Assembly: GCF_004101865.1 (NCBI RefSeq)
Contig: NZ_CP026118.1
Span: forward strand, 2,621,001 to 2,685,000
Reading direction: 5' to 3'
DNA length: 64,000 nt
Source: Halobacillus litoralis
GTDB taxonomy: Bacteria > Bacillota > Bacilli > Bacillales > Halobacillaceae
Position numbers and translations under genes: made by a program. Below, piece after piece: positions 10,491 through 11,534 of this stretch (positions within the stretch are counted from its first letter, which is position 1; each line of letters starts with the position of its first letter). The notes beneath the pieces were generated by a model. It saw nothing but the letters and a program-made list of their open reading frames with translations. It was not told the DNA's origin and did not search any database.

Positions 10491-11534
10491 ATGGAATCTA
10501 TACATTTGAATGTAGCATTGTTACGAAGACGTGTTCCTAATCTGACCAAGTCTGCACGCACAGTTGGACTGAGACCTGCAACTGTCTCAAATCTGTGCAA
10601 TGGAAAAATATCATTGGGACGAACCGAAGTGCGGACCCTGGTGGCGTTAGCTTCTTTAGCGGAATGTAGTTTGGATGAACTTATTATAAGAGGGGAGAGG
10701 TTTGAAATGATTGAAACAGGGATAAAGGTGATTGACTTATTTGCTCCGTTAGCTAAAGGAGGAACTGCCGGCCTGGTGGCACGACCAGGAATGGGCCAGC
10801 TTGTTGTTCTTGCAGAGATCTTCCATCGCCTCAATAAGAAAAAATTTAAAATCGCTTTTCTTCAACCGGAAGGCGACCACCCCGAAATCAGTGATATCAC
10901 AGAAATTGTAGATTTCAATTGCCTCTCAATCTCTGAGGTTGAGGAAAAAGTTATTCAAATTGGAAAAAACACAGATGTGATTTTTGTTGCTGATCGCTCT
11001 CATGTGATAGATGGAACGATTTACAGGCTCCAGGAAAAATGGGCTGATCTCCCATCTGTCACCACGTTTTTAGTTGACCTGAAAGGGGAAGCAATTGATA
11101 AAGATTTACCATATGGTCCTTTAGAAACATTGTGGCAGTTCGATATGGAATTATCCGCACGTCATTTGTATCCAGCCATCCACCCTTTGCACTCGACCTC
11201 CACTGTGCTGGAAGGAGCGAATCTAGAGCAAAATCACTTTTACACACAACAAAAAGCACAAAAATTATTACGCCGGTATCGAGAATTGAAATCAATAGTA
11301 AGAGTGAGCGGGGTGGAAACTTTATCTGAAACAGACACTCAAATCTATCAGCGAGGAGAGAAGCTGGAAAACTATCTCACTCAACCTCTCTTTGTTGCTG
11401 AAGCTTTTACAGGAGTGGAAGGTGTACATGTACAACTAGAACAAGTGCTTGTTGATGTACGTAAATTGATCGAAGGGGTTTACGACCATAAAGACAAAGA
11501 AGACTTTGCTATGGTGGGGAGAATTTCTGGTTGA
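10491..11534 (+). CDS. Helix-turn-helix protein fused to a catalytically degenerate F1-ATPase beta-like domain
   Basis: Residues 1-66 look like a Cro/C1-type HTH ([19 protein letters not shown], then [13 protein letters not shown]). From residue 75 on the protein follows F1-ATPase beta in order: [12 protein letters not shown] (75-86), P-loop region 97-104, Walker-B-like TDVIFVAD (161-168), YRLQEKW matching MGQLQERI (178-184), [12 protein letters not shown] (227-238), RRYRELKSI (261-269), the DELSEED-region equivalent (about 276-282), [11 protein letters not shown] (298-308) and MVGRI (341-345). The P-loop Lys and Thr are replaced by Gln103 and Leu104, the catalytic Glu loop is altered, and about 30 residues of the alpha/beta interface after Walker B are missing. 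The beta-barrel domain is replaced by the HTH. So it is probably a DNA-binding regulator on an ATPase-derived scaffold, not an ATP synthase subunit. GGGAGG precedes the ATG. Role unknown. Confidence 0.85.

What the first reader, a model, noticed from the sequence alone, without database searches (positions are those of the whole stretch)
10491..11534. A transcription-factor-like protein built from a dead F1-ATPase beta subunit
Seen: an HTH domain (1-66) runs directly into about 270 residues colinear with the nucleotide-binding and C-terminal domains of ATP synthase beta ([49 protein letters not shown]). The P-loop Lys-Thr is Gln-Leu, the catalytic Glu loop is changed, the beta-barrel domain is replaced by the HTH and about 30 interface residues are missing. 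Known: F1-beta relatives (Rho, FliI, F1) form hexameric rings. Inference: a DNA-binding regulator, perhaps a ring, that may sense nucleotide or energy state or be purely structural. I know of no described regulator of this kind.
Basis: partly seen in the sequence, partly recalled or inferred. Interest (0 to 1): 0.93.

Follow-up and report, generated by a model that had tools for sequence, protein, structure and literature searches.

The report
Gene repressor from retired F1-ATPase beta
In many Bacillus relatives a copy of the ATP-synthase beta subunit has lost its catalytic machinery, gained a DNA-binding head and become what looks like a gene switch, with conserved DNA landing sites in front of its own gene and, in some species, of a peptidase, amidase or exporter gene.

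Summary

New here: its probable operator. Upstream of nearly every homologue lies an array of alternating half-sites, GTAA-N6-TTAC-N8-GTAA, usually twice, 45 bp apart, over the promoter (97 of 102 loci; 18 of the 22 not used in training). Strong copies at other genes occur only in genomes with the regulator: 6 in 62 genomes, 0 in 237 without a full-length one. They lie just before M3 oligoendopeptidases (3), acetamidase-like enzymes (2) and an ABC exporter (1).

Best reading: a ligand-gated autorepressor with a retired F1 beta as sensor. The signal is unknown; adenine-pocket residues are mostly kept. A ring is unsupported. Most genomes with it, the window's included, show no strong target but itself. 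It is patchy: full-length in 62 of 299 genomes of the order.

The parts
10491..11534 (+). regulator gene, 347 aa: HTH fused to retired F1-ATPase beta
10506..10688 (+). Cro/C1-type HTH, residues 6-66; residues 26-28, 30-35, 38-39 invariant in 120 rows
   Evidence: helices
10695..11225 (+). retired F1-beta nucleotide-binding domain, residues 69 to about 245
10779..10805 (+). degenerate P-loop, residues 97-105 (Lys replaced by Gln103)
11226..11531 (+). F1-beta C-terminal helical domain, residues about 246-347
10408..10433 (+). distal operator block GTAA-N6-TTAC-N8-GTAA, exact; PWM 28.3
10452..10477 (+). proximal operator block, exact; PWM 32.2; 44 bp after the distal one
10440..10445 (+). putative -35 TTGATT, 17 bp before the putative -10; the generic promoter scan did not list this pair (8 of 12 matches, it needs 9)
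   Evidence: my reading; conserved as TTGC in relatives; scan
10463..10468 (+). putative -10 TACTAT, inside the proximal block
   Evidence: my reading
10479..10485 (+). putative ribosome-binding site GGGAGGG
   Evidence: my reading

Best explanation
A one-component transcription repressor. HTH dimers bind GTAA-N6-TTAC dyads strung along one face of the DNA across the -35 and -10 of its own promoter and, in some species, at promoters of an M3 oligoendopeptidase, an acetamidase/formamidase-like enzyme or an ABC exporter. The effector domain is a retired F1-ATPase beta subunit: catalytic residues gone, cleft and most adenine-pocket residues kept; a small molecule bound there would change the dimers and release the promoter. 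Shown by computation: fold and ancestry, loss of catalytic residues, the conserved operator, and that strong operators away from the gene occur only in genomes with it. Inferred: that this protein binds this operator, that it represses, that a ligand in the old cleft gates it. The ligand is open; the targets make a peptide- or amide-like compound more likely than a plain energy signal.
For: Fold and ancestry. Gln103 in 120 of 120 rows and 47 of 47 of a wider set down to 38% identity. HTH core nearly invariant. Operator: block exact in 50 of 79 promoters and with at most 1 mismatch in 72 of 79; 8 of 971 other upstream regions have at most 1 mismatch, and these lie near the regulator's own promoter or are the regulator. 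PWM >=17 in 97 of 102 loci, 18 of 22 among loci not used to train it. It covers the probable -35 and -10. Trans sites: in 299 genomes of the order, 12 non-self exact hits in 62 regulator genomes, six at PWM 28.0-35.1; 13 hits in 237 genomes without a full-length regulator, best 19.2 (Fisher p 6.5e-5, treating related genomes as independent). All six lie before M3 (3), FmdA_AmdA (2) or ABC exporter (1) genes.
Against: No binding experiment. HTH_26 is below its Pfam cut-off in the window protein and only 28 of 120 members match it at 1e-3. Strong trans sites exist in only 6 of 62 genomes by the exact pattern; in most genomes, the window's included, no strong target but its own promoter was found, and no genome-wide excess of the pattern is seen in the own genome (13 hits at up to 1 mismatch, control 37 per strand) or in 16 family genomes (25 hits, 9 of them non-self, control 26). 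The own genome has neither an M3 at 1e-60 nor an FmdA at 1e-20. The most distant copy, L136, scores only 10.9 upstream. The PWM was trained on 79 of the promoters, and the cut between strong and weak sites was drawn after seeing them.
Confidence: 0.72

Rival explanations
1. Adenine-nucleotide or energy sensor: the same regulator, but the old cleft binds ATP, ADP, AMP or a nucleotide messenger and reports energy state.
For: Residues facing the adenine pocket of F1 (Tyr345, Pro346, Phe418, Phe424; passages of PMC5608556) stay aromatic or identical in most rows: 227 aromatic in 120 of 120, 228 Pro in 120, 300 Phe in 113, 306 Phe or Tyr in 118; Walker-B Asp168 in 120.
Against: Walker-A Lys and Thr, catalytic Glu and the stretch with Arg256 are lost; residue 300 is Leu in the window protein; the targets are hydrolases and an exporter, and no site scores 5 or more in the 12-kb atp region.
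Confidence: 0.3
2. Assembly sensor: the pseudo-beta binds free F1 alpha (or competes in the ring) and reports ATP-synthase assembly.
For: Descent from beta, C-terminal domain best conserved (42 of 131 aligned residues identical to the own AtpD).
Against: One of the residues of the alpha-beta contact network named in PMC9615146 (bovine R408, passages) faces Glu290; catalytic-loop region replaced by a family-specific segment 196-218; patchy presence while all 44 family genomes have AtpD; no operator in the atp region.
Confidence: 0.08
3. Hexameric ring that threads or wraps DNA.
For: F1 and Rho relatives form rings (established knowledge); the array offers about seven half-sites.
Against: Half-sites alternate in direction, which fits dyads of dimers better than a six-fold ring; barrel domain and about 53 residues are missing. 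Not tested directly.
Confidence: 0.08
4. A decaying atpD duplicate fused by chance to an HTH, without function.
For: Patchy; broken or partial copies in G034, G029, G269, G283.
Against: Most HTH positions and Gln103 are invariant or nearly so in 120 rows; operator kept over the range of relatives; trans sites.
Confidence: 0.02

Closest known systems
F1-ATPase subunit beta (AtpD, TIGR01039)
   Same: Fold of nucleotide-binding and C-terminal domains; sister clade; 78 of 277 aligned residues identical to the own AtpD.
   Different: HTH instead of the barrel; Walker-A Lys/Thr, catalytic Glu and about 53 residues lost; own promoter and operator; accessory gene.
Cro/C1-type HTH regulators
   Same: Five-helix head as predicted, HTH_26 match, dyad operators near the promoter.
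   Different: Effector domain from F1 beta; weak match to the Pfam models; multi-dyad array.
MocR-type regulators (GntR head plus aminotransferase-like sensor)
   Same: Works alike in principle: DNA-binding head fused to an enzyme-derived sensor (start of abstract of PMC5320631).
   Different: Different head and different enzyme; here no ligand is known.
Transcription termination factor Rho
   Same: Same superfamily; weak match at residues 76-122.
   Different: Rho keeps its P-loop; this family groups with F1 beta, not Rho.

Membership tests
F1-ATPase beta (AtpD) | Walker-A GxxxxGKT | tested here: not met
   Gln103-Leu104
F1-ATPase beta (AtpD) | catalytic Glu in GERTREGN loop | tested here: not met
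   Gly128 faces own AtpD E190
F1-ATPase beta (AtpD) | N-terminal beta-barrel domain | tested here: not met
   HTH in its place
F1-ATPase beta (AtpD) | score above the TIGR01039 cut-off | tested here: not met
   147.4 against 462.85 bits
F1-ATPase beta (AtpD) | fold of nucleotide-binding and C-terminal domains | tested here: met
Cro/C1-type HTH | match to a Cro/C1 HTH profile above cut-off | tested here: inconclusive
   HTH_26 19.8 bits against 22; 28 of 120 members match at E 1e-3
Cro/C1-type HTH | dyad operator near the promoter | tested here: met
   GTAA-N6-TTAC array; binding itself not tested
Enzyme-derived one-component regulators (MocR-like in principle) | DNA-binding head fused to an enzyme fold | tested here: met
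Enzyme-derived one-component regulators (MocR-like in principle) | ligand bound in the old active site controls DNA binding | not testable with these tools
   needs protein
Hexameric F1/Rho-type ring ATPase | functional P-loop | tested here: not met
   Gln103 in 120 of 120 rows
Hexameric F1/Rho-type ring ATPase | ring oligomer | not testable with these tools
   only monomers can be predicted here

The most novel reading that the evidence does not exclude
An integrated decoy. The retired F1 beta is kept as bait for natural inhibitors of the bacterium's own ATP synthase, for instance peptide-like ones. When such a compound binds the decoy, the repressor lets go and the cell makes peptidases, amidases and an exporter that destroy or expel it, so that resistance is wired to a mimic of the drug target. 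For it: the origin of the sensor and the kind of target genes. Against: no compound is known; aurovertin is a poor candidate, since its hot-spot Arg412 (bovine, PMC9615146) faces Ala294 and is Phe already in the own AtpD; targets other than itself are known in few genomes.
Probability: 0.15. Interest if true: 0.93.

Novelty: new variant of a known kind. Interest (0 to 1): 0.82.

Why it matters
I know of no other regulator whose sensor descends from the catalytic subunit of the rotary ATP synthase. If true, it shows how a subunit of one of the most constrained machines of life can leave its complex and become a switch. It comes with a ready assay: a defined operator, a promoter and candidate targets in cultivable Bacillaceae. 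Several of these proteins are named in databases as 'ATP synthase subunit B' or 'F-type H+-transporting ATPase subunit beta', others as hypothetical, which hides them.

Tried and rejected
Operon partner: in 80 loci plus the window no neighbour cluster other than the gene itself is found in more than 21 (LiaR-like response regulator). The exceptions are in the full report. Site in the atp region: nothing at PWM 5 or more in L099; one search had shown a one-mismatch match inside atpD, taken as chance. Own genome: besides the two blocks of its own promoter, one search gives one more exact half-site match, at G000:C1:1008342, between genes about 200 bp before an SDR-like gene; it scores only 7.7 and is not counted. 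One-mismatch pattern in 76 genomes (its table was cut, so no totals are drawn from it): beyond sites named in the report it gave one at 26.0 in G322, inside a helicase-like ORF, probably chance, and weaker ones, of which six were looked at in context (L244-L249) without a clear target. Viral origin: none of 50 pattern matches in viral contigs encodes a relative. PDB search with the HTH alone: only HigA antitoxins at E 0.42-0.63. Window amidase 8689-10089 as target: no site; the best window score outside the own promoter is 8.3. Literature: searches listed no regulator with an F1-beta domain (listings only, CC-licensed PMC papers only; two searches returned no paper).

Rows dropped or caveats: L056 (short upstream) was left out. 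L076 was missed by my start finder and is absent from the promoter set; its own promoter is the only source of hits at 20 or more in 2.53 million positions scanned outside own promoters. L061's own gene was wrongly among the control genes. G269 and G283 (remnants) count among the 237 genomes. M3 and FmdA tests used 30 fetched loci each, not every listed match. One search scored one strand only.

Full report

WHAT WAS LOST AND KEPT. Against the own AtpD, Walker-A Lys164-Thr165 are Gln103-Leu104; Gln is present in 120 of 120 rows and in 47 of 47 of a wider set that reaches 38% identity and includes an HTH-less paralogue. Catalytic Glu190 faces Gly128, Arg191 faces a mostly acidic or Asn residue, and the stretch with Arg256 is deleted. 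Walker-B Asp252 is kept as Asp168 (120 of 120; 44 of 47). About 53 residues are missing. Residues named for the adenine pocket of F1 (Tyr345, Phe424, and V165, F166, P346, F418; passages of PMC5608556) map by the alignment to 227 (aromatic 120 of 120), 306 (Phe or Tyr 118 of 120), 105 (Val 120), 106 (not aromatic), 228 (Pro 120) and 300 (Phe 113, Leu 7; Leu in the window). A segment at 196-218, with Asp196, Gly199, Leu211 and Asp218 in 47 of 47, differs from beta where the catalytic loop was; it is my candidate for reading the signal. A tree of 32 proteins puts the family in one clade (100/100), joined to F1 beta (99/95) and apart from alpha, FliI, Rho and a V-type A subunit (midpoint root).

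DISTRIBUTION. The 120 listed hits of the protein search are family members. Own family: full-length in 17 of 44 genomes, 9 of 22 in the own genus; split over two frames in G034, a fragment in G029; all 44 have AtpD-like matches. Order: 64 of 299 genomes match at E 1e-40, 62 with a full-length copy, G269 and G283 with C-terminal remnants. Phylum sample: 3 of 398, one (G487) outside the order. One scan of viral contigs confirmed no relative. A Paenibacillus plasmid of 897 kb holds a copy at 50.9% identity with a site at PWM 33.4.

OPERATOR. The upstream regions of 79 loci and the window show an array: GTAA-N6-TTAC-N8-GTAA, about 7 bases, TTGC, about 8 bases, and again GTAA-N6-TTAC-N8-GTAA before the ribosome-binding site. 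Half-sites alternate every 10-12 bp. TTGC would be part of the -35 and TTAC plus two bases the -10 (my reading; the generic scan does not list this promoter in the window). Both blocks score 10 or more in 65 of 79 promoters; of these 50 have them 45 bp apart and 62 have TTGC 12 bp before the second block (the window has TTGA). The block is exact in 50 of 79 promoters and within one mismatch in 72 of 79; shuffled promoters reach one mismatch in 5 of 1580 and none is exact; of 971 other upstream regions 8 are within one mismatch. Of those 8, one is a regulator itself and seven belong to divergent neighbours whose hit lies within about 200 bp before the regulator; L045 is the least clear. A matrix trained on these promoters gives 17 or more in 97 of 102 loci. 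Of the 22 loci that were not in the training set 18 pass. The five that fail: L054 16.8; L132 and L133, where the site stands before an FmdA gene that leads the operon; L180, where it is about 350 bp upstream; L136 from outside the order, 10.9.

REGULON. In the own genome the pattern within one mismatch gives 13 matches against 37 per strand for the reversed control, and in 16 family genomes 25 exact hits, 16 at the own promoter, against 26 for the control: no excess beyond the own promoter. A stricter pattern in 58 genomes of other families suggested targets, and the same pattern in 299 genomes of the order, scored with the matrix trained on own promoters only, gives: self 39 sites in 33 genomes, 24.7-35.5; non-self in 62 regulator genomes 12 sites, six at 28.0-35.1, the rest 18.0 or less; 237 genomes without a full-length regulator 13 sites, best 19.2. 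The six are before an M3 oligoendopeptidase (G268, G119, G230), an FmdA_AmdA enzyme (G205, G241) and an ABC exporter pair (G232), about 20-40 bp before the start codon; for G241 and G232 this takes an inner Met, as the longest ORF begins inside the site. TIGR02289 scores above cut-off in all five M3 proteins tested, though Pfam finds no domain at 1e-3 in one of the two M3 proteins given to it. FmdA rests on Pfam PF03069; the formamidase equivalog model is far below its cut-off. With one mismatch, M3 genes of G046 and G205 also carry sites. Of 30 fetched M3 loci the 4 at 54% identity or more to the query have a site (16.7 or more) and the 26 at 39.8-42.2% have none above 8.8; of 30 fetched FmdA loci 4 of the 8 above 50.4% have one and 0 of 22 others (these limits were drawn after the fact). 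In G301 and G184 FmdA and regulator share an operon behind the operator. In G069 FmdA follows the regulator by 30 bp, and in G070 an alpha/beta hydrolase follows it directly. In L041 an amidase follows at 97 bp. In G076 an HTH-less paralogue has dyads upstream. The own genome lacks M3 at 1e-60 and FmdA at 1e-20, so its only strong target known is itself.

MECHANISM. An HTH dimer on GTAA-N6-TTAC is the simple account; 14-bp dyads with six central bases are what 434-type heads read (recalled, not tested). Dyads about 22 bp apart on one face would let dimers stack over the promoter, and as the array covers -35 and -10, repression is likelier than activation. The retired beta would be the sensor, as aminotransferase-like domains are in MocR regulators (start of abstract of PMC5320631). 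Targets break peptide or amide bonds or export. PepF of B. subtilis, an oligoendopeptidase, degrades the precursor of the peptide microcin J25 made there (abstract of PMC11218540). This points to a peptide- or amide-like signal and permits the bold reading that the sensor is a decoy of the ATP synthase; neither is shown.

VERDICT. Family, operator and regulon were not met in the searches I could make (listings only).

Noticed in passing
window 8689-10109: Amidase gene (PF01425) and a hairpin-terminator-like site end about 380 bp before the regulator; in Thalassobacillus L041 an amidase follows the regulator at 97 bp. The window amidase has no operator.
   Followed up: partly
L126 4305-5231 (G076): HTH-less paralogue (269 aa, Gln in place of the Walker Lys) with operator-like dyads upstream; could pair with the regulator and block it.
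   Followed up: partly
L180 2665-3047 (G227): Two operator blocks lie about 350 bp before the regulator with a 60-aa ORF in between, perhaps a leader gene.
   Followed up: no
L245 3915-3940 (G322): A site of PWM 26.0 lies inside a helicase-like ORF of 1014 aa; probably chance.
   Followed up: partly
L100 3843-3868 (own genome, G000:C1:1008342-1008367): A third exact three-half-site match of the own genome lies between genes, about 200 bp before an SDR-like gene; PWM only 7.7.
   Followed up: partly
L257 4995-6053: A copy on an 897-kb plasmid of Paenibacillus cellulositrophicus, annotated as hypothetical protein, with a strong operator upstream.
   Followed up: yes
L013 and other loci, upstream flank: A LiaR-like response regulator lies in the flanks of 21 of 81 loci; likely shared gene order of related genomes.
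   Followed up: no
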